The translations under genes were made by a program, and so were the position numbers. Positions 1,752-60,999 of a stretch of 64,000 nucleotides of DNA are shown in pieces; the first letter of the stretch is position 1; every line of letters begins with the position of its first letter. Source of the DNA: Rhypophila decipiens (Eukaryota; Ascomycota; Sordariomycetes; Sordariales; Naviculisporaceae); NCBI GenBank assembly GCA_033297075.1, contig MU858152.1:1-64000 (forward strand), given 5' to 3'. Below the pieces are notes generated by a model. The model ran no database searches and was not told where the DNA came from. It saw nothing but the letters and a program-made list of their open reading frames with translations.

Positions 1752-3407
1752 CTACATATTATCCTCTTCTTCAGAGGTCTCCCAAACTACCTGACAGGTT
1801 CGCGCATTATGTCCGGTCTTTCCGCAGTTGCCACAACGCCGCGCACGCGGTTCGCCTGCCTCCGCACGACTGCCCCCCCGCTGTGTATTTTCCCCCCCAG
1901 CATCAACGATGCCCTTCTCAATCCGAATCGCCTCAGCTTCAGCTGCATTAAGTGACCCTCCAAGACGTAATTGGTTTTTTTTGGCCCTTCGGCGCTTGCT
2001 TAGTACCTCATTTGCTGTACGAAGTCCACGGTTCTCGGCCTCCAGAAGAGCCATTCTATGCGCTAACTTGGAAATACCTTTAGCCTGCAAGTCCACTACC
2101 TCGTACAACGCAGTCGGTGAGCTGTCTTGATGTTTATCGATCCTTTCCTTAAGCGAATTAGAGCTTCGAATAGCCTCATACGCAGTTGTGGGTGTTTTCG
2201 GGTCCCATGAGCTCTGACTGCCAGGCCGTGAGTTGGATGGTGTAGGCGTCTTTGGTTTGAAATCCAAGCGGGAAATGACAACTTCAGGGTCGAATGGTAC
2301 AAGGCCGGCCTGCCTAAAGCCAGCTTGTACGTTTTCCTCGCCCATTACAGCAAAAAAAGCTGCTTTAAACGCAGGAAAGAAGTCATCCTTGGTGATATGT
2401 GTGATATGCATCCGCATCATCTTCTCGATTTCCTTGCCGTATGCGGCCTTTAGTGGGCCAAAACAACCAACATCGAGAGGCTGGAGTTCATGCGAAGAAT
2501 GAGAAGGCATACACAAAGCGATAATGTTGTGTTCCTTGCAGTAATCATCAAAATCGGTAGACTTGTGGTTGTTATGACCATCGAGGATTAATAGCCGAGA
2601 AGCACCGTTTGTACGAGACTTTGTACACTTGTTGAAATGCTTTAACCAATCAAGAACAATTTCATTTGTAGTCCAGCCATTTTCGCTCGGTTGGACGCGC
2701 CATTGGGCTGGGAATTGGCCATTTGTATACCATGAGAGGAGGTGATATTTGCCCTTGACGATGATGTACGGAGGTAGCGCCCACCCGTCTGCACAAATGC
2801 CCTGAATCACAGAAACCCGTTCTCGATTGCCAGGCTGCTTTGTGCGAGGCCTTCCACGGCGGTCAGAGGTTGTGACAACCTTTGCGTGCGATAGCATTCC
2901 CATCAAAAATCCAGTCTCGTCAAAGTTGTAAATATCCGACTCGAGGATACCGTATTTCGCAATAACGTTGCGTACAAGTGCAAACCAAGCGCCAATAATA
3001 GCAGGATCTTCGGCAAGTGCTCTCTGATAGTCAATTCGGCGTCGAAAGCGCATATTGAGTTGTGGTTGGCGTCGTACGAAGTTTTCTGCCCATCGCGGGC
3101 CGACACGCGTCGCGTCGCGTACCCCAAGGAGACGATCGGCCATATCTCGCACATCTTCGAGTCGTGGCGGAAATCCCCGATCGACTAGGTCAATGATCCG
3201 TTCAAGAATCACGATCTCTTCTAACGTAGTCAACTTCATCGAATTGGCACGCTTTTCATGTCGTGGCAGTCGTCCGGCGCGTCGCTTGCGGAGTGTTGCT
3301 TCGGGGATATTGTAGATATTGGCCGCTTTTCGTACGGATAATTTTGGGTCGCGTTTGATAGCGTCCAGTGCAAGGATTATACGACTTTCGTTTGAAGAGG
3401 AGGCCAT
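1752..3407 (-). CDS. pogo-family DDE transposase
   Basis: A 551-residue transposase that cuts and pastes its own element in the nucleus. In order it shows an N-terminal psq-type helix-turn-helix (KLSVRKAANIYNIPEATLRKR), a CENP-B-like second DNA-binding helix region (to about residue 130, ending near NFVRRQPQLNMRF), and a DDE_1 catalytic core. Candidate catalytic aspartates sit in NFDETGF, LILDGHNNH and LQPLDVGCF (a DDD triad). Near the C terminus there is a CCHC zinc knuckle (CGNCGKTGHNARTC). No stop or frameshift was seen. The start is the ATG at 3407 just inside the right repeat. Length and architecture fit fungal Fot1/pogo transposases. Confidence 0.93.
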   Translation of the reverse strand: MASSSNESRIILALDAIKRDPKLSVRKAANIYNIPEATLRKRRAGRLPRHEKRANSMKLTTLEEIVILERIIDLVDRGFPPRLEDVRDMADRLLGVRDATRVGPRWAENFVRRQPQLNMRFRRRIDYQRALAEDPAIIGAWFALVRNVIAKYGILESDIYNFDETGFLMGMLSHAKVVTTSDRRGRPRTKQPGNRERVSVIQGICADGWALPPYIIVKGKYHLLSWYTNGQFPAQWRVQPSENGWTTNEIVLDWLKHFNKCTKSRTNGASRLLILDGHNNHKSTDFDDYCKEHNIIALCMPSHSSHELQPLDVGCFGPLKAAYGKEIEKMMRMHITHITKDDFFPAFKAAFFAVMGEENVQAGFRQAGLVPFDPEVVISRLDFKPKTPTPSNSRPGSQSSWDPKTPTTAYEAIRSSNSLKERIDKHQDSSPTALYEVVDLQAKGISKLAHRMALLEAENRGLRTANEVLSKRRRAKKNQLRLGGSLNAAEAEAIRIEKGIVDAGGENTQRGGSRAEAGEPRARRCGNCGKTGHNARTCQVVWETSEEEDNM

Positions 3408-43936: not shown

Positions 43937-45795
43937 TGTTGCAATATAGACTCAGCTAGTCTTGGTGCGATTAACGTTTTACCGGATGACAGTTGTTGCT
44001 TTTGCAAGAATGTGAGCCATTTCTTGACCTCTTTGGGACTTTGCTCGGTGACGACCGATATCAAATGCTGTAATTCTTTGAGCGTCTCGGGTTCGTTTAC
44101 GTAGGTTCGACAATCTCTTTTTGAAGCTTGAAGAAGACCAAATATACGAAGGGCTGCCTGTATGTTGCGCATGTGGACGGCGGTCTGCCCTGCCGTCTCA
44201 TTGGTATCAGTGCAGTCCTCGAAGCTGATGGTCGACCATTCCGGGTTGCGTATCTCCCACGAAAACACCTGGAAAGAATCTCCCACAAGTTCTGTCTTCC
44301 TCTGCGTAATCTGCAACGAGTGGTCCAATGTTTCGCGGTCGTTCAGATGTATATCTGGGGACAGCCATGTTGAATCGATCTCAGCCGTCCAATCTGGCAT
44401 CCAGCATGGCTGTCCCGTCATGGGGGCGAGCGCTGCAATGTAAAGAAGCTGCTGATGTCCAATGGCCGTCAAGATCTGGATGTTGAGTTCTCGAAAGACG
44501 TGTATAAGCTCCTGTTTGTAGTCTGGGGTAGAAAACTCCAGTGGCACTTTGGCTAGTTTCTGGAGGATACTCTGCATCCCGAATGCCTTGTCATGGACGT
44601 ACTTGGACTTGCGTTTGAGTGCCAGGTCGATGATGTTGACCGAAGTCAGGGATTCAACTCGGAGTTTATCCAGACCGCTGGGCTTGATCAACGCGCGCAA
44701 GGAAAGCCGGAAACAGCCCCACCACATGAGGCCAGCGAATATGAAAAATACAAGCCATGCAGCCAACGTCCATACAACACCCCAACAGAACTTGTAGTTA
44801 AAGCTTGAGCGATCCCGAGCATTCCCACTGGCGTACATGCCTACGGCGACGAAACCGCATATTACAAGAGGAATGATTGGGAGAGAAGCCAAGGCGATCA
44901 TCGGGATCAAAAAGGTAACGATGCCCAATTTTTCGATTTGACGCGCAGTACGCTTTACGTCGTCCATAAATTTGCTACGTCGTCGGATGGGAGACGGTTC
45001 CGGAATTTGCGTCCACACTGTCGCAGGATTGTGTACTTGATCTCGTGCCAGAGCGAGATTGAACCAGATGTCGACAGAAGTAGTATAATCCAGGGACCCG
45101 ACACTGATGGCAAATGTGTCCCATTCAAGGTGATAACCCCCATAGACGAGAATCGGCTTGCGTGACAAGAGGAGCTCCTGATACGTCCAGACTCTTTCCA
45201 CCCACTCGTTCTGTAGCATGACTTCAATATCGTCCATTGTTGTACTGAAGGGCAGAGTCCAGAAATGTCGGCGGGCCGGCGATCGAGTGCTGTGCAGTTT
45301 AAATCTTTGGCAGATGAAGGCGAATGCGGCGGAATAGTACATCCGGGGCCACCTAAGTCGTCCCTCTTCATCCTCCATATGTCTATTGGCCTTGTAGAAG
45401 CGTTCGAATGGCGGACGAGAGAGATACTTGAGCGCCCGTCTCACTCGCGCATCTCCAGCACCTAGCCAGATATATCCTGACTCGGCCTTCGAATAGATTT
45501 CCCCCATGAGAGGAATCTGCCGTTGTTTTTCATCGTCGTCGTCTTGATTTATGCAGATGGCGTCTATCCAGATGGTGAACCTTCCCAATTTCTTGCGGAG
45601 TGTTTTCAAAGATGAGTAGCCATTTGGGAGCAGTGGTATTTGGTGCGACCCGCAGTGAACAAACTGGCGCTCTCCCCCCGAATCGCCCCATACATATGAT
45701 AGGGTTGAGAAGACGGCATTCAGGGTCAGGTCGATGGTTCTGAGCTCTCCTTGGACTGGCTCATTGTGACTTTTCAGAGGGGCGTGAACATCCAA
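43903..45795 (-). CDS. HET-domain protein with internal membrane segments, C-terminally truncated
   Basis: A heterokaryon-incompatibility (HET, PF06985-type) protein of about 630 residues. HET hallmarks are in order: FSTLSYVWGDSG, LGRFTIWIDAICINQDDDDE and MGEIYSKAESGYIWLGAG, then NEWVERVWTYQELLLSR. Midway two strong membrane stretches occur (VTFLIPMIALASLPIIPLVICGF and VVWTLAAWLVFFIFAGLMWW), unusual for HET proteins and suggesting membrane anchoring. No ATG opens this frame (it starts with TTG). The true start probably lies in a further upstream exon, with an acceptor near 45815 (TTCTCAG). The C terminus runs into a 209-bp insertion and stops soon after the first 56-bp repeat. HET proteins trigger cell death on non-self fusion. 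Whether this truncated form works is unknown. Confidence 0.8.
   Translation of the reverse strand: MDVHAPLKSHNEPVQGELRTIDLTLNAVFSTLSYVWGDSGGERQFVHCGSHQIPLLPNGYSSLKTLRKKLGRFTIWIDAICINQDDDDEKQRQIPLMGEIYSKAESGYIWLGAGDARVRRALKYLSRPPFERFYKANRHMEDEEGRLRWPRMYYSAAFAFICQRFKLHSTRSPARRHFWTLPFSTTMDDIEVMLQNEWVERVWTYQELLLSRKPILVYGGYHLEWDTFAISVGSLDYTTSVDIWFNLALARDQVHNPATVWTQIPEPSPIRRRSKFMDDVKRTARQIEKLGIVTFLIPMIALASLPIIPLVICGFVAVGMYASGNARDRSSFNYKFCWGVVWTLAAWLVFFIFAGLMWWGCFRLSLRALIKPSGLDKLRVESLTSVNIIDLALKRKSKYVHDKAFGMQSILQKLAKVPLEFSTPDYKQELIHVFRELNIQILTAIGHQQLLYIAALAPMTGQPCWMPDWTAEIDSTWLSPDIHLNDRETLDHSLQITQRKTELVGDSFQVFSWEIRNPEWSTISFEDCTDTNETAGQTAVHMRNIQAALRIFGLLQASKRDCRTYVNEPETLKELQHLISVVTEQSPKEVKKWLTFLQKQQLSSGKTLIAPRLAESILQHSPGLNSLGAL
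43937..43992. repeat. 56-bp direct repeat, right copy
   Basis: Perfect copy of 43672-43727, 265 bp apart start to start. This copy is the one still in frame with the HET exon. Confidence 0.95.
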
Positions 45796-53807: not shown

Positions 53808-56800
53808 TTAGTGAATGATAACCGGAGAGCCTGGTTCCTCGGTCACAACATGTCTCTGGGCAACTCTCCCAACCCCAATCCGTTTCCATGTCCCCATACT
53901 TCCCGCACTCGGGGCAGTTGACCTGATAACGACGAGAACATAGCAAACCAGCTGATTCTGAGTAACACCGAGCACAACACACTTGGCCCCGGGCGGTAGA
54001 TGCTCCTCGCCATTGTCGAGTAGAAGACCATTAATGTAGCTACTGGTGAAATCGAACACCGGCGCCCCTAGGAACAACGACTCCGGGTCATCTCGATTGG
54101 CGCCCGTGGGTGGTGACAACCAGCCCACCTTGGGGTTCCAGTCAACTGTTCCTCCTGGTATGTCTCGCATGAACTCGATCCCCCCTTTCCAGGCCATCCA
54201 TGACCAGGTGGGCACGGGTCCACCTGAGAACTCTTCAATCCCCTCGAGTGGTTGCTTCCCCCTATGCCAGAGCAGATAACGGTGGAGGTGGTTCTGGAAG
54301 ACGCCGTATCCCCCTTGGCCGCCGACGGTCTGGATCAGTCGAGTCTCGAGTCCCTTGATGGCCACGGGTCTGTCCTTGGCGAATGATAGCTTCTTGTTGG
54401 AGTATTGCTCGTACAGATCTTGGAGGAGCTTGATCTTCTTGCCCTTGGACTGTGAGACGGCGTATGCGGGGAAGTTGCTGTCGCCGAGAAAGGATGCTTT
54501 GTCACTAATAAGGTGATTATCAGTACGGATTCATTCTTTCTAGGTTGGGAGCATACAAGCCGAATGATCTGCCGCGTTGGTGAACTCAACTCACTTGTTC
54601 ATTCTTGTCAGTGTCTCACATCGCACACCGCTTCCACATTCCCAGTACGTCTGGCTTTCAGTGAAGTGAATGGTACGTCTGGCAAGAGCTCTCTCCTGTA
54701 AAACCCAACCCCGGCTGTTGATGTCACTGCCATCGACGTGGCCGCTGAAGTCGTTGATCGCCTCGCAGACATAGTACGAGATGCCGCTTTTGGCGTCCGT
54801 CATTGGAATCGCCTGCCGTTCGGATCTGGGCTTCAGAAATCCATCGTCCGTCCCGGAGGCACATGTCGCGGCAATGACACAGTACGCGGAGCTGAAGACC
54901 TCTTCCATGCGTTGAGACTCGCGGCGCCAGTCTTCTCTGTCGTCCTGGATAATACAGAGAGAGTCGATCCAGAGAAACCGGTGGCCTAGACTGCGGGTCA
55001 CTTTGATCGCGTCCAAGAAGGTCTTGGGAAGATGATCGAGAGGGATGACCCATTCTTTCCGACCTTGGACATTTGCTTTGAGTGTCTTTAGAGTCTTTTG
55101 ATGGTTGGGTCCCCACATATGTGAGAGGGCAATGTACTTGGTGCCTTGGTCGATGTGGCTGGTGTCACAGACGAGACGAACACTTGGCGAGGAGTCGCCC
55201 ACGACATCGATGAGGCGTGTTGGAAAGAAACTCATATTTCGCGGGCAGCAATTGTGAACCTCGTCGCATTGGGTAAGCCAGTGAGAGATGACGCTCATGT
55301 GGGCTTTGCTGCCGGCTTCAGGAAGACGAGGGAATCCGAGTTGGATGCCGCGTGGGGGATAACCTGCCGACAGATGTTAACAACGGACTTGGCATGATAC
55401 TTCAAGGGCGGCAGCCAAGCAACATTCATACCTTTATCCGCACGACAAAGAGTTGCAACGCCTCTTTTTTCATCTCCTCGAGCAGCAATGCGAGCTTCAG
55501 CCCTGAAAAATCCGAATGTCGTACCCGCCGCTTCGTCCCTCCCGTTGCACCACGTGAGCAAGAGACGACATAGAGTGCAATTTGATACGCCGATCCGTGA
55601 CTCCAGCGAGAATACCGTATCACTGAACTCACAGTTGGGTGATAAGAGATCCAGGCCTTTGCATCGAGTACACAGTGATGTGCTTTCGTGGGGAGGGAGC
55701 ACTGTGTGGACATCGATAGTTTGAAAGATCTGACGTGCGAGGCCTTCGTCGGGCGTGTATTCCCAAGTGTTGTTGAACTTTAATGACAGTCAGTAGAGTC
55801 ACACGTTAGCAGTAATACTGGAGTGTTGAAATACCTTCTGTTGACGAGGAAGAGAGCTTAAGCTAATGTGAAGTCATCTTTGGTTTCGTCTAAGAGCACT
55901 CACCGTCTGCCGGCATTATTAGTAGATGACAACGAAGCCATTGGTGCTAACTTACCGACTAATGCGTTCCAAGCCAGATGTCGTGTCAATCTACGAGGCG
56001 CTGGGAATTGGAAAGTTGAGAGCTTGCTAGGGGGTTGACTGACCATCTGGCCCGTATATGAGATGTCAGATTAACCGCCTAACAAAACTCAGAGACTGTT
56101 CAATTAACCCACATACTTGGAAGATTTCACTCAGCTGGTCAGCAAGATTGCGAGTTTTGAGGGCAGTTGGAAGCAAGCACTTACATCCTGTTTGTCGTTT
56201 TTATTAGTGATAAAATAACCGTCTGCGTGGATTCAAAAGTGTTGCGTGGGTCATCGACGTACATCCTGAAGCGAACAGGTATTAGTAGGGAATGAATGAC
56301 CGCAACGTCCAGATTTCCGAGCCACGAAACTCTTTAATATACCATAGGGTTCCTGTTGCGAGCTGTTTGGCCGCCTAGAGAGTTTCTTCTGGCATCTTCA
56401 ACCGACAGATGAGCCATCGAGGTGGCGAGTGAACGTGCTGTTGACGTACTCGTTGTCAGCTCAAGTCTGTAACTGCCCACCTTCACATCACGCAGAATAT
56501 CGGTCATTATATCGTCAAACTCCTCAGCGTCAGCTCGAGCTGGCTTGTTAATAGGCCGCACGTCCTCATTCCATGTAGCAGTGGTTAGCTCGACTCTGGG
56601 AGCAGTGTTGGATGCGGAGCTCCTGGCTTCCGAAGCGTCCGCTGGCTGGCGCAGAGCTCGCTGCGTCCTTGTGTTTCGGTCCGGAACGTTGACAACCAAT
56701 AGCCTGTCTTTAATGAGCCTAACCAAGCGATGTAAGGGCGATCCCGGCTTGTGGTCATCTAGGAGATATTTAATCGTTTGCTTAACAACAGGGCGGAGGT

Positions 56801-58263
56801 CATCGGACGGATTGTCGGACGGATTGTCGTTCCAGAAGGGCACGGGCGGCTTAGAAGGACCTCCGCCTCTCACCGCCGTTCGAAAATCTTGGAGCCCACC
56901 CAGTCCGTGAGCCAGCCAGATGGCAAATTCGAGGAAGACACATCCAATTGACCAAATGTCGTAGAGCCGTGAGGCAGGCTCATCGCGTCGAGCGTCCAGA
57001 TCAAACTCCGGTGGCATATAGGTAACCGAGATAGCGGTCGTCTTGGTTGCGTGGCCTCGATGTTGGGTGATTTCATTGTGAACTTTGGCCAGACCGACAT
57101 CGGCGATCACCAAACGCATCTCGTCAAGGGTTTCGCCATTGCGGCGGAAGCAAAGGATATTTGGCGGCTTCAAGTCACCATGACGGCAGTTCTCGGCGTG
57201 TAGCATACGAATACCCGAAGCAAGGCCCTTGAGCTGCTTGAAGGCCCAGCAATGTGTGGATGACAGCGTCGAGTCAGTCTTGGCCCAAAGCTGCTCCAGG
57301 TTGCCTTCTTCGGTCCAGGGGAACAGGAGAAAGTGGTTTTCAGCTTGTGTGTAGTATGCTATTCCCCTGATGAAGTGACCATGTCCAAGCCGGTTCATGT
57401 GCTCAAGGTTCTTGGCTTCGTTTTTGGCCACCTCCACAAATCTTTCAAAGGACCAACGGTCAGCTTTTATCAGCTGCTTCTGGGCCACGCAGAAGTATCG
57501 GACACCATCGATATCCTCGTATTGGAGGTCTCTCTTGAGACAGGGCGCGCGTCAGTGTCTGTAGCACAAAAATAGCCAACCAAGTAGTACACAATGTATC
57601 AGGTTTGCTTACCAGAGTGTCCTCATCGGCCACTTGAAGATGGTCACCATGCACCAACTGCTTCTGTACTAAACCGTAGCCGCCTTTGTTACTGTCTGCA
57701 GCTGCTGTGTCACGGGGACGAAATGGAAGTGTCGTGTCGGTGTGAACCTCGTAATCGAAGCGAAGACCAGGGGTAAAGACCGGCACTATAAGACGATGCT
57801 GCCAGATCTCTACTACGAGGTGGAGAATACCTGGCAGAAGTTTGCCAAGCTGAAACTTGCTAGTCCAGTCTTTAAGCTCCATTCTGTGTGGTGAGTTCTT
57901 CAACCCGTCCCTGACAGCATTGTTGAGCTTATCCCGATTAAACGGAAGCTGGTTGTCCCCGTACTTGGTCCAGTAGAGAGCAACGATCAATTCCGGGGTG
58001 TTCGTGAGCACAAGAACGGCAAAAGTCTTGGGCGCGTCCCGCAGAATGAAGGTAACCAGATCCTGAAGTCTAGGGTCATCCAGAATAGAGGGATAGGTCG
58101 ACTCCAGCTCTGTCTCCACGACCTCACGAGACAAGATAGCCTCCAATTGCCGGGCAGGCAGATATTCATGTCGCGGTCCGTTCACCATGCATCGTTTGAG
58201 CTGATTCTGGAACAGGGATGTCTCCGACTCCGTGTCACTCGAATCCTCGTTGATGACGCTCAT
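53808..58263 (-). CDS. protein kinase-HET fusion, with a one-base frameshift in the HET part
   Basis: Exon 1 58263..57614 carries an N-terminal domain shared with the neighbouring kinase (EYLPARQLEAIL, then RDAPKTFAVLVL). After a 79-nt intron, exon 2 57533..56343 is a kinase: RHGDLKPPNIL (HGD instead of HRD), IADVGLAK (DVG for DFG), a PPEF APE-like motif and YDIWSIGCVFLEF. Seven one-codon exons then lead in frame to 55777..54595. That exon opens with NNTWEYTPDEG, has a C..C/C..C motif, then the HET core (KYIALSHMWG, RFLWIDSLCIIQDD, SRGWVLQERALARR). The last exon is 54504..53808. Near 55300 the frame shifts by one base between KPAAKPT and SVISHWL. Likely role: kinase-linked recognition or incompatibility signalling. 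If the two halves are separate genes, the HET half lacks an upstream start codon. Confidence 0.72.
55778..56342 (-). other. ladder of seven candidate 3-nt microexons
   Basis: Minus-strand order: GAT 56265-56263, GAT 56187-56185, TAT 56115-56113, ATG 56046-56044, TCG 55958-55956, ACG 55906-55904, AAG 55837-55835. Each is preceded by AG (CAG, CAG, AAG, CAG, TAG, CAG, CAG) and followed by a GT donor (GTACGT, GTAAGT, GTGGGT, GTCAGT, GTAAGT, GTGAGT, GTATTT). The eight introns are 77, 75, 69, 66, 85, 49, 66 and 57 nt. Branch-like words include CTACTAATA, CACTAATA, GCTGACC, TCTGACA and GCTAACG. All introns are phase 0. Confidence 0.6.
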
Positions 58264-59284: not shown

Positions 59285-60999
59285 ATGGGACAAGGCCCCA
59301 GCACTCCTACGGACGAACAACGACAGCAGATGGAGGGCAGCATAGACGAGCTTCACGCCTCGTTGAGTGACGAACAGTTCGAAATCCGGTGTCCCATCAC
59401 TCGAAACAAATGGCTGCTTCCAGAAGTCTTGAAACAGAACATCACTGCGGAAAGAGTGCAGGCTTGCACCTCATACAGAGACTCTATATGTGACGAGTTT
59501 GAAGCAGAAGACATTGTCACCAACGCAAAGAGGGTATTCGCCATCCTCATACTCTGCTATTACGACCGCAGCATCATCGAAGAGCTACTTCTAAGGGAGG
59601 GCCTGACTGATAGAGACCTCCCCTTGGAAAAAGCCCCCAACACTAGCTCGCTGATAAGCCCCACGAGCGGCAAGGAGTTCAAAGCCTTCGGAAAGTTCGG
59701 AAAGTTCGGAAAGCTTGCCAAGGAATTCCTGGAGTGTCAATGGCGCGTCTCGTCGCCCGTGTTCGACGAGCCTTACAACAGCCAGCCGGCCGAATCTCAC
59801 ATCCGTACACTCAGCGTCAACTGTCCATTGCCGTTGAGAAACAAAGAGCATCTCACAAACACCCAGACAAGCAGCGTGTCCAAGTGCGAGCTTCACCCAG
59901 CGCACTATCCTTTGGCAAATGAGGTGAGCACCAAACTGCTGACAATCAGCCTGAGATACATGACCTACGATGCTGACAACCCTTGAAGAACGCAAACCAT
60001 GTCCCCGTGGCTGTCAAGGAGATATTTGGCAAAGATGCGGATGACATGTTCAAGAAAGAGATTGACACCCTCCTTAAGATGCGTCAGTTCAACAATCCTC
60101 ACTTGATCAAGCACATCGCTGCGTGCCGTGCCGAGTCAGACCCTCCAATCCGCTGCATCATCTTTCCTTTTGCAAGCGGTGGCGACCTATGCGCCTACTG
60201 GGACTCTGGTGACACACAGCCACGAACTGCGGAGCTGGTGCAGTGGTCACTGCAGCAGATGCACGGCCTGGCGACGGCTGTGCATGACCTCCATGGAGGT
60301 TTCCCTGATGACCCACGATCCAACGTTCGACACGGAGATCTCAAGCCTCAGAATATCCTCATCTTTGAGGATCCGGGCGAAGAAAAACGACTGGTAATTG
60401 CCGACGTGGGAATCGCAAAGGTCCACATGGGACCAACAGCCGTGAGAACGCAAAAGGCGACGGGGACCTTTGCAACAACAAGATCCTACGAGGCTCCCGA
60501 GGCCCACCCGGATACCAAAAAGAGAGATGAAAGAAGATCGCGGACGTATGATGTCTGGTCGCTGGGATGCATCTTCCTCGAGTTCACAATCTGGCTGCTC
60601 TTCAATGTCCGGGCGGTAAACGACTTTGCGGCTCATCGTCCCAAGATATGGACTGGGTATGACGGGCCTGGAGGCTTTTACGAGATATCGCCTGAGGGAA
60701 TTCCGTCTGTATGCAAGGAAGTCCAACGAGCGCTGGCTGATCTGCTCGATGATGATCGCTGTGGTGAAGATACGGCGTTGGGTCAGCTTGTGCGGCTTAT
60801 CTCGCGCAAGATGCTCGTCGCTGAGGTGGCTGGACGCTGTGATGCGGAGAAGTTGGTAGAAAGTCTGAAATGTATTTTGGATGGGTCTCGTGACAAGGGC
60901 AAGGACTATTTCCTGAGACCGTCGGGGAGACGTGTGGTGACACCAGAAATGTTTTGTCCGGTGCGTAGGGGATCGAGCTCGAATTCTATTACCAAGTAG
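59285..60999 (+). CDS. Ser/Thr protein kinase-like protein, paralogue of the kinase-HET kinase
   Basis: Two exons (59285..59923 and 59989..60999; 65-nt intron) encode 549 residues. The N-terminal domain of about 200 residues resembles the one on the kinase-HET protein (LPEVLKQNI, AKRVFAILILCYY, DRDLPLEK) and holds a triple FGK repeat (FGKFGKFGK). The kinase shows VAVKEI (lysine present), KKEIDTL (alpha-C Glu), VRHGDLKPQNIL (HGD for HRD), IADVGIAK (DVG for DFG), YEAPE (APE) and YDVWSLGCIFLEF. It ends after the kinase with no HET domain. The start at 59285 is chosen for its context (GCCATGG). It is probably cytosolic. Divergent arrangement with its paralogue suggests an old inverted duplication. 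Confidence 0.85.

What the first reader, a model, noticed from the sequence alone, without database searches (positions are those of the whole stretch)
55778..56342. Seven consecutive one-codon exons may link a kinase to a HET domain
Seen: seven AG-NNN-GT modules on the minus strand, at spacings that leave introns of 49-85 nt. Most have fungal branch words, two of them near-perfect TACTAAT. By chance AG-N3-GT should occur about twice in this length. Both the kinase exon end (CCT ATG|GTATAT) and the HET exon start (AAAG|TTC AAC) are phase 0, so the chain reads through. Without it the HET half has no ATG, since a TGA lies just upstream in frame. Serial 3-nt microexons would challenge exon-definition limits and standard gene finders would miss them.
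Basis: partly seen in the sequence, partly recalled or inferred. Interest (0 to 1): 0.88.

Follow-up and report, generated by a model that had tools for sequence, protein, structure and literature searches.

The report
Seven one-codon exons in kinase-HET gene
A fungal gene that joins a protein kinase to a HET (cell-death) domain appears to spell seven amino acids of its linker with seven separate three-letter exons, and sister genes in the same genome spell the matching linker either in a similar shattered way or in one unbroken piece.

Summary

Other exon lengths 1-15 reach at most 22.5, about 528 kb of other strand sequence 16.7, and 0 of 1000 shuffles match it.

A diverged paralogue (L002, 35% identity) has its own seven-microexon array at the same place (61.0), and a third (L011) a partly fused one. 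The peptides align: DDYMSTK, LDYKHPK, ETYKHA-R. L010 and L015 encode matching residues contiguously with the HET start: QDYTFPV, TDYGNSR. The natural register scores 46; the best of 33 shifts scores 9.

The public model of the same gene (P0001) skips all seven codons.

Weak points: no transcripts; microexons 5 and 7 could be longer exons.

Tandem codon-sized microexons are reported for Tuber melanosporum nank genes, so this is a new variant of a known kind. The switch between shattered and unbroken linkers is the surprising part.

The parts
57613..58263 (-). Exon 1, ATG and N-terminal region of the kinase-HET protein
   Evidence: Assembled frame open with one final stop, 1224 aa; similar N-termini, by eye, in P0194, P0195 and P0197.
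56343..57533 (-). Kinase exon; ends ...AGG AAC CCT ATG in phase 0
   Evidence: Pkinase PF00069 E 2.1e-21; junction residues RNRNPM as in P0001.
56266..56342 (-). Array intron 1, 77 nt, GTATAT...TACTAATA...TTCAG
   Evidence: 9.1 bits, weak donor (1.8); retention meets a stop at codon 3.
56263..56265 (-). Microexon 1, GAT (D)
   Evidence: AG|GAT|GTACGT; translations of P0003 and P0196 (RMYV) fit AG-GAT-GTAYGT, and P0197 keeps D with intron 1 apparently absent.
56188..56262 (-). Array intron 2, 75 nt, GTACGT...CACTAATA...ACAG
   Evidence: 19.3 bits.
56185..56187 (-). Microexon 2, GAT (D)
   Evidence: AG|GAT|GTAAGT; D at the same place in L002, L010 and L015, T in L011.
56116..56184 (-). Array intron 3, 69 nt, GTAAGT...TGCTGACC...CCAAG
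   Evidence: 24.7 bits.
56113..56115 (-). Microexon 3, TAT (Y)
   Evidence: AG|TAT|GTGGGT; Y at the same place in L002, L011, L010 and L015; in L003 only if the slightly lower-scoring of two acceptors is used.
56047..56112 (-). Array intron 4, 66 nt, GTGGGT...ATCTGACA...CCAG
   Evidence: 19.1 bits.
56044..56046 (-). Microexon 4, ATG (M)
   Evidence: AG|ATG|GTCAGT; residue not conserved.
55959..56043 (-). Array intron 5, 85 nt, GTCAGT...CATTAG; weakest link of the array
   Evidence: 8.6 bits with a poor acceptor and branch (1.7); an acceptor at 55991, giving a 35-nt exon, is preferred when exon length is free.
55956..55958 (-). Microexon 5, TCG (S); least certain
   Evidence: AG|TCG|GTAAGT; equal spacing in L002 and L010 favours 3 nt; one search gives the 35-nt alternative.
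55907..55955 (-). Array intron 6, 49 nt, GTAAGT...TACTAATA...GGCAG
   Evidence: 18.1 bits.
55904..55906 (-). Microexon 6, ACG (T)
   Evidence: AG|ACG|GTGAGT; 3 nt also in the free-length chain.
55838..55903 (-). Array intron 7, 66 nt, GTGAGT...CAACAG
   Evidence: 11.8 bits.
55835..55837 (-). Microexon 7, AAG (K)
   Evidence: AG|AAG|GTATTT; K in L002, R in L011 and L015, V in L010 at this place; a 126-nt intron skipping it or a 22-nt exon score slightly better on splice signals alone.
55778..55834 (-). Array intron 8, 57 nt, GTATTT...TACTGACT...TAAAG
   Evidence: 16.3 bits.
55432..55777 (-). HET-side exon 1 (FNNTWEYTPD..., with a CxxC motif)
   Evidence: W-E motif shared with relatives.
54595..55363 (-). 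HET-side exon 2, HET domain
   Evidence: PF06985 E 1e-31.
53808..54504 (-). Last exon, C-terminus and TAA
   Evidence: Frame of the assembled 1224-aa protein.

Best explanation
One gene encodes a 1224-aa protein with an N-terminal region, a kinase domain, a short linker and a HET domain. The seven linker residues next to the HET exon are encoded by seven exons of one codon each. SHOWN (sequence): a chain of eight compact introns (49-85 nt), all phase 0, runs exactly from the kinase exon to the HET exon; one paralogue carries an equivalent full array and another a partly fused one; two others encode matching residues contiguously. INFERRED: each short intron is recognised by intron definition, its donor paired with its own branch point and acceptor. 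Splicing factors cannot occupy sites 3 nt apart at once, so neighbouring introns must be removed one after another; once one is gone its microexon is part of a larger exon. The normal mRNA includes all seven codons and the protein carries the conserved D-Y linker. Any skipped microexon leaves the frame open (linker of 0-7 residues); retention of 7 of the 8 introns meets an in-frame stop inside the intron, and the eighth shifts the frame.
For: Genome-trained chain 55.0 at exon length 3, at most 22.5 at other lengths 1-15, background maximum 16.7; 0 of 1000 shuffles; a textbook model gives the same chain. L002: 61.0, eight introns, seven 3-nt microexons CTT GAT TAT AAG CAT CCA AAA. L011: GAG ACA TAC AAA CACGCT, 49.0. 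L002 and L011 share Y-K-H with only silent differences (TAT/TAC, AAG/AAA, CAT/CAC). L010 QDYTFPV and L015 TDYGNSR are contiguous with the HET start. Random AG-N3-GTNNGT triplets (pool of 95) equal the joint fit of the three arrays to those two linkers in 0 of 200000 draws; register 0 scores 46, best of 33 shifts 9. Of 72 homologues, 23 had the W motif my pattern sought (one of them, P0072, probably spurious), and 9 of these 23 have [DE]Y within 14 residues before it. Relatives P0003, P0196, P0197 support microexon 1. Retention: stops in introns 1-4 and 6-8; intron 5 has none but is 85 nt, a frame shift.
Against: No RNA was available. P0001, 99% identical, is annotated with 56343 joined to 55777, and the Echria relative P0002 likewise shows no linker insert; P0001 starts at an internal Met, so the model is imperfect, but it is evidence. 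With exon length free and the frame kept, the best chain is 3,3,3,3,35,3,22 (62.2 against 55.0, with no charge for the choice of length). Intron 1 donor and intron 5 acceptor are weak. Residues 4-6 of the window linker (M S T) are poorly conserved. 14 of the 23 W-motif homologues lack [DE]Y there. In L003 the higher-scoring of two acceptors (19.6 against 18.2) leaves the Y out of the exon. The fit of the L011 array alone is weak (p 0.03), and I chose the two reference linkers after seeing the D-Y match.
Confidence: 0.84

Rival explanations
1. The array is spliced combinatorially: microexons are included or skipped by regulation or at random, so that one gene makes many linker lengths and sequences between kinase and HET, as reported for the codon-sized microexons of Tuber nank genes. 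Compatible with the best explanation; differs in saying that variation is the function.
For: All seven microexons are 3 nt and phase 0, so every subset keeps the frame (2 to the 7th possible products; the full and the empty form checked). Tuber nank precedent (passages). Introns 1, 5 and 7 score lowest, where skipping would be expected; the public model is the all-skipped form.
Against: D-Y stands at the same distance before the W in window, L002, L010 and L015, and seven residues separate the kinase-side intron from the HET start in window, L002 and L010, which suggests that full inclusion is what selection keeps.
Confidence: 0.25
2. Only part of the array is one-codon exons: microexons 1-4 and 6 are 3 nt, but the fifth and seventh exons are longer (35 and 22 nt).
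For: Frame-kept chain with free lengths scores 62.2 against 55.0; intron 5 acceptor is poor.
Against: The comparison charges nothing for the freedom of length; the longer linker would not match the spacing of L002, L010 and L015, whereas the all-3-nt reading does.
Confidence: 0.12
3. One 565-nt intron is removed in a single step; the AG-NNN-GT sites are unused, perhaps a relic.
For: Public model P0001 and the aligned relative P0002.
Against: Does not explain the chain score, the arrays in L002 and L011, or the match of their codons to contiguous linkers.
Confidence: 0.05
4. Two separate genes: the kinase ends at the TAA at 56336-56334 and the HET half starts on its own.
For: In-frame TAA after the kinase exon; no ATG in the HET frame between the TGA and the exon start.
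Against: 62 of the 72 listed homologues carry both a kinase and a HET domain in one protein (the query itself joined both, and only the 7991 candidates sharing most words were scored); six kinase-HET pairs on one strand were found in this genome.
Confidence: 0.02

Closest known systems
[quoted passage not shown] 2012, not read; seen as cited in PMC3689799, PMC4986451, PMC10197012, passages)
   Same: Multiple one-codon exons in a fungal gene of the non-self/cell-death kind.
   Different: There NLR genes with reported alternative splicing; here the linker of kinase-HET genes in a probable Sordariales fungus, seven exons, with contiguous paralogues that show the codons to be conserved.
Trichoderma Xlr2 20-nt microexon (PMC11121469, passages)
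   Same: A fungal microexon missed by gene finders.
   Different: A single 20-nt exon with RNA evidence that switches the product by glucose.
Schistosoma micro-exon genes (MEGs; PMC10526429, start of abstract in a listing)
   Same: Genes with runs of short exons, from 3 nt upward.
   Different: Long introns (up to 5 kb) and secreted proteins; here introns of 49-109 nt in the two full arrays and one linker only.
Arabidopsis APC11 single-nucleotide exon (PMC4674806, passages including the abstract)
   Same: An exon far below exon-definition size; the authors find intron definition, combined with recursive splicing, more plausible.
   Different: One isolated exon, shown by experiment.
Stwintrons (search listing with starts of abstracts only)
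   Same: Closely packed fungal introns removed in sequence.
   Different: In stwintrons an internal intron splits a splice signal of an outer one and, by that definition, no exon is left between them; here three nucleotides remain at each step.

Membership tests
Tandem codon-sized microexon array (Tuber nank kind) | Several consecutive exons of one codon | tested here: met
   Seven in the window and seven in L002 by chain score; in silico only.
Tandem codon-sized microexon array (Tuber nank kind) | Microexons present in mRNA and alternatively spliced | not testable with these tools
   No transcript data held.
Tandem codon-sized microexon array (Tuber nank kind) | Host gene is NACHT-ANK | tested here: not met
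   Host gene is Pkinase (PF00069) plus HET (PF06985).
Kinase-HET fusion family | Kinase and HET domains in one protein | tested here: met
   Both domains found in exons of one assembled frame; 62 of the 72 homologues listed carry both.
Stwintron | Internal intron splits a splice signal of an outer intron and leaves no exon | tested here: not met
   Each step leaves 3 nt, and those codons match contiguous paralogue linkers.
Introner (mobile intron copies) | Introns are near-copies of each other or occur elsewhere in the genome | tested here: not met
   DNA search of the 565 nt finds only itself, though that tool skips simple repeats and very common words; best of 120 intron pairs z 3.7 (100 shuffles) with local score 20, i.e. 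little more than ten matched bases.
Schistosoma MEG | Secreted protein built mostly of short exons with long introns | tested here: not met
   Seven 3-nt exons in a 3675-nt CDS; introns 49-90 nt. Secretion not tested.

The most novel reading that the evidence does not exclude
The linker between kinase and HET is a spot where a coding stretch repeatedly passes between an unbroken exon and complete codon-by-codon fragmentation without changing its length. The arrays fall in separate clades of the kinase tree (least three changes, two forced by starred branches, over the 16 rows with a state), so either fragmentation is ancient and was undone several times by exact intron loss (L011 and P0197 as half-way states) or it arose more than once. 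Kept in place, the array could act as a gate on a death effector: an unspliced or half-spliced message never yields the HET domain, while skipping tunes linker length.
Probability: 0.25. Interest if true: 0.88.

Novelty: new variant of a known kind. Interest (0 to 1): 0.74.

Why it matters
If transcripts confirm it, this is a natural case of seven consecutive exons of three nucleotides, flanked by short introns, with good controls in the same genome: a second complete array, a half-fused array and unbroken versions. That makes two questions directly testable: how a spliceosome handles sites three bases apart many times in a row, and how introns come to lie between every codon of a conserved stretch, or are lost exactly. 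It also means that public models of such immune-type genes can silently lack conserved residues: P0001 lacks all seven. A gene finder that allows 3-nt exons might reveal more in fungi.

Tried and rejected
Branch-site pattern count in the whole genome: 8 matches against 10 for the reversed control; uninformative. A first automatic training of splice models (68 introns) was noisy and not used. A second (185 introns) drifted, and I kept only its 86 introns scoring 16 or more outside the window minus strand. Introner origin: no copies, no strong similarity among 16 introns. Stwintron reading: rejected because codons are retained and conserved. Longer exons for numbers 5 and 7: kept as a rival. A weak 4-intron chain on the window plus strand (20.2 at 2017-2374, introns up to 130 nt) is taken as chance: shuffles of a 570-nt piece alone reach 23.2 (introns up to 95 nt). 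Chains on L004 (21.4) and L016 (20.7), seen only with introns up to 200 nt, likewise. Intron-naive relatives covering the HET side were sought (120 of 299 hits listed, 6 opened): none shows a readable array; P0080 runs upstream of its W without [DE]Y within 14 residues. 14 of 23 homologues lack [DE]Y before the W; I cannot tell lost motif from missed microexons. Paralogue count: 6 kinase-HET genes from 47 kinase matches and the HET matches listed (151 matches, 150 of 266 candidates scored), so a lower bound. Of the 47 kinase matches 20 were fetched as loci and scanned for arrays; 27 were not. For 14 of the fetched loci I looked for a HET side only in the open frames of the flanks.

Full report
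What is there. The minus strand at 58263-53808 carries a gene for a protein with a kinase domain (PF00069, E 2.1e-21) and a HET domain (PF06985, E 1e-31). The closest protein in the search is P0001 from Rhypophila decipiens (99% identity), so the window very probably comes from that species or a near relative. The host genome G000 is 45.7 Mb in 408 contigs.

The observation. The background rate is 2.13 per 565 nt for AG-N3-GT and 0.141 for AG-N3-GTNNGT, of which six are present here. I trained donor, branch and acceptor matrices on 86 introns from the window plus strand and 20 stretches of the genome, leaving out the window minus strand, and asked for the best chain of introns (44-95 nt) separated by exons of one fixed length. 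No other length from 1 to 15 exceeds 22.5, and the other 528 kb of strand sequence examined gives at most 16.7 for length 3. With introns up to 130 nt that maximum is 20.2. None of 1000 dinucleotide shuffles reaches 55.0; their maximum is 23.2. A textbook matrix that knows nothing of this genome gives the same chain (78.4, next of lengths 1-12 36.6, background maximum 24.5).

A second and a third array. I scanned the 19 other kinase loci fetched for the same structure. L002 (G000:C86:35142-36182 and flanks) gives eight introns and seven 3-nt exons, CTT GAT TAT AAG CAT CCA AAA, score 61.0 with introns allowed up to 130 nt. They run from the end of the kinase exon (...RKQRL) to the start of its HET exon (LDYEWET...). 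Its kinase is 35% identical to the window's. L011 (G000:C24) gives GAG ACA TAC AAA and then a 6-nt exon CACGCT before a HET exon that begins CGC TTG GAC (RLDTTWEY), score 49.0 with exons of 3-15 nt in steps of 3 and introns to 140 nt. Its first donor and second microexon have alternatives, one of which holds a TAG. The other 17 loci reach at most 17.3, or 21.4 with introns up to 200 nt among the 12 of them scanned so.

The codons mean something. Aligned to the tryptophan of the HET exon, the window reads D D Y M S T K | F N N T W, L002 L D Y K H P K | L D Y E W, L011 E T Y K HA R L D T T W. In L010 one phase-0 intron follows ...KERNL, and the next exon reads Q D Y T F P V L D K D W (an alternative acceptor 3 nt on, 11.8 against 12.7, would drop the Q). 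In L015 the open frame of the HET start reads T D Y G N S R L D S D W; its kinase lies in another frame, so an intron lies upstream, whose place I could not fix. In L003 two acceptors compete: the higher-scoring one (19.6) starts the exon at P M S D Y W, the other (18.2) at Y S V E P M S D Y W. Y is therefore at the same place in 5 of 6 kinase-HET genes found, in the sixth only with the lower-scoring acceptor, and D before it in 4 of 6. L002 and L011 share Y, K and H with silent differences only. The fit of the three arrays to the contiguous linkers of L010 and L015 scores 46 in the natural register and at most 9 in 33 shifted ones; 0 of 200000 draws of chance AG-N3-GTNNGT triplets (pool of 95) did as well, although singly the p-values are 0.004 (window), 0.0003 (L002) and 0.03 (L011, six columns). 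The scoring reference is only two sequences, and I chose it after seeing the D-Y match.

Relatives elsewhere. Of 72 homologues, 23 show the W motif that my pattern sought, and 9 of those 23 have [DE]Y within 14 residues before it, at varying distance; the other 14 do not. Proteins predicted from metagenomes, apparently without regard to introns, read into the first array intron: P0003 and P0196 both reach R-M-Y-V (as AGG ATG TAY GTN this is AG-GAT-GTAYGT, as in the window), after 19 and 24 codons of otherwise unlike sequence, and P0197 goes from KKPL directly to D-V-R, as if intron 1 had been lost and the D codon kept. P0195 and P0193 stop too early to tell; P0199 reads QEVQMCV, which does not fit an AG-GAT-GT module; P0194 and P0198 I could not line up at the kinase end.

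Against. There is no transcript. P0001 is annotated without the seven codons, P0002 from Echria macrotheca likewise; that is expected of a gene finder that cannot make 3-nt exons, but P0001 might also reflect RNA. With free exon lengths and the frame kept, replacing microexons 5 and 7 by 35- and 22-nt exons scores 62.2 against 55.0. I prefer the all-3-nt reading because it keeps the spacing seen in L002, L010 and L015, but microexon 5 with its weak acceptor is the least certain.

How it most likely works. Introns of 49-85 nt with their own donor, branch point and acceptor are the usual substrate of intron definition in fungi (general knowledge; the median of my training sets was about 72-76 nt). 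Sites 3 nt apart can hardly be engaged together, so the introns must be removed in turn (inference). For a constitutive 1-nt exon in Arabidopsis the authors reached a similar view (PMC4674806, passages). Retained introns end translation before the HET domain in seven of eight cases, and the eighth (85 nt) shifts the frame; skipped microexons only shorten the linker. Whether skipping is used is open.

Evolution. On a kinase tree of 36 rows, 16 of which have a known state, the three array genes do not form one clade; three changes are the least, two forced by starred branches. Warnings: long branches, a part-filled L015 row, shuffled labels need as many changes, and the unbroken state of the outside homologues rests on their annotation. 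The window gene sits with P0193-P0199, Echria and Cercophora; L002 and L011 sit with genes of unbroken linkers. Either arrays are old and were lost several times by exact intron loss, or they arose more than once. The array is not made of recognisable copies.

Known or new. Multiple codon-sized microexons have been reported for the nank genes of Tuber melanosporum (Iotti et al. 2012, which I did not read; cited in PMC3689799, PMC4986451 and PMC10197012, passages). The papers listed by my searches (most lists are capped) include none whose title or abstract start concerns microexon arrays in HET genes or in Sordariales; subscription journals are mostly not held. I therefore file it as a new variant of a known kind.

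Noticed in passing
window 59977-60996 (+), with 59186 onward: A second kinase-like gene (PF00069 E 1.5e-17) lies head to head with the kinase-HET gene. In Echria macrotheca the homologue P0002 and a kinase-only protein P0246 are both listed with a contig of 241557 bases, so the pair may be conserved.
   Followed up: partly
window 45175-45711 (-): Another HET domain in a 650-aa frame, about 9 kb from the one studied.
   Followed up: no
G000, whole genome: The genome is rich in HET genes: 151 matches reported with only 150 of 266 candidates scored, and 74 NACHT matches.
   Followed up: no
P0001 against the window gene: P0001 is annotated from an internal Met and has a different C-terminus (TFTKIGAHDCWTI), so the public model of this gene is doubtful at both ends as well as in the linker.
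   Followed up: no
P0004 (Cercophora newfieldiana): Its model lacks the WEYTPD-to-CxxC stretch right after the kinase end, as if the gene finder failed at the same linker.
   Followed up: no
P0022 and P0028 (Colletotrichum): Both models hold an odd insert in the linker that may be read-through intron, at the same place.
   Followed up: no
L010, acceptors at 3040 and 3043 of the reverse strand: Two acceptors 3 nt apart (CAGCAG) could add or drop one Q before the D-Y motif.
   Followed up: no
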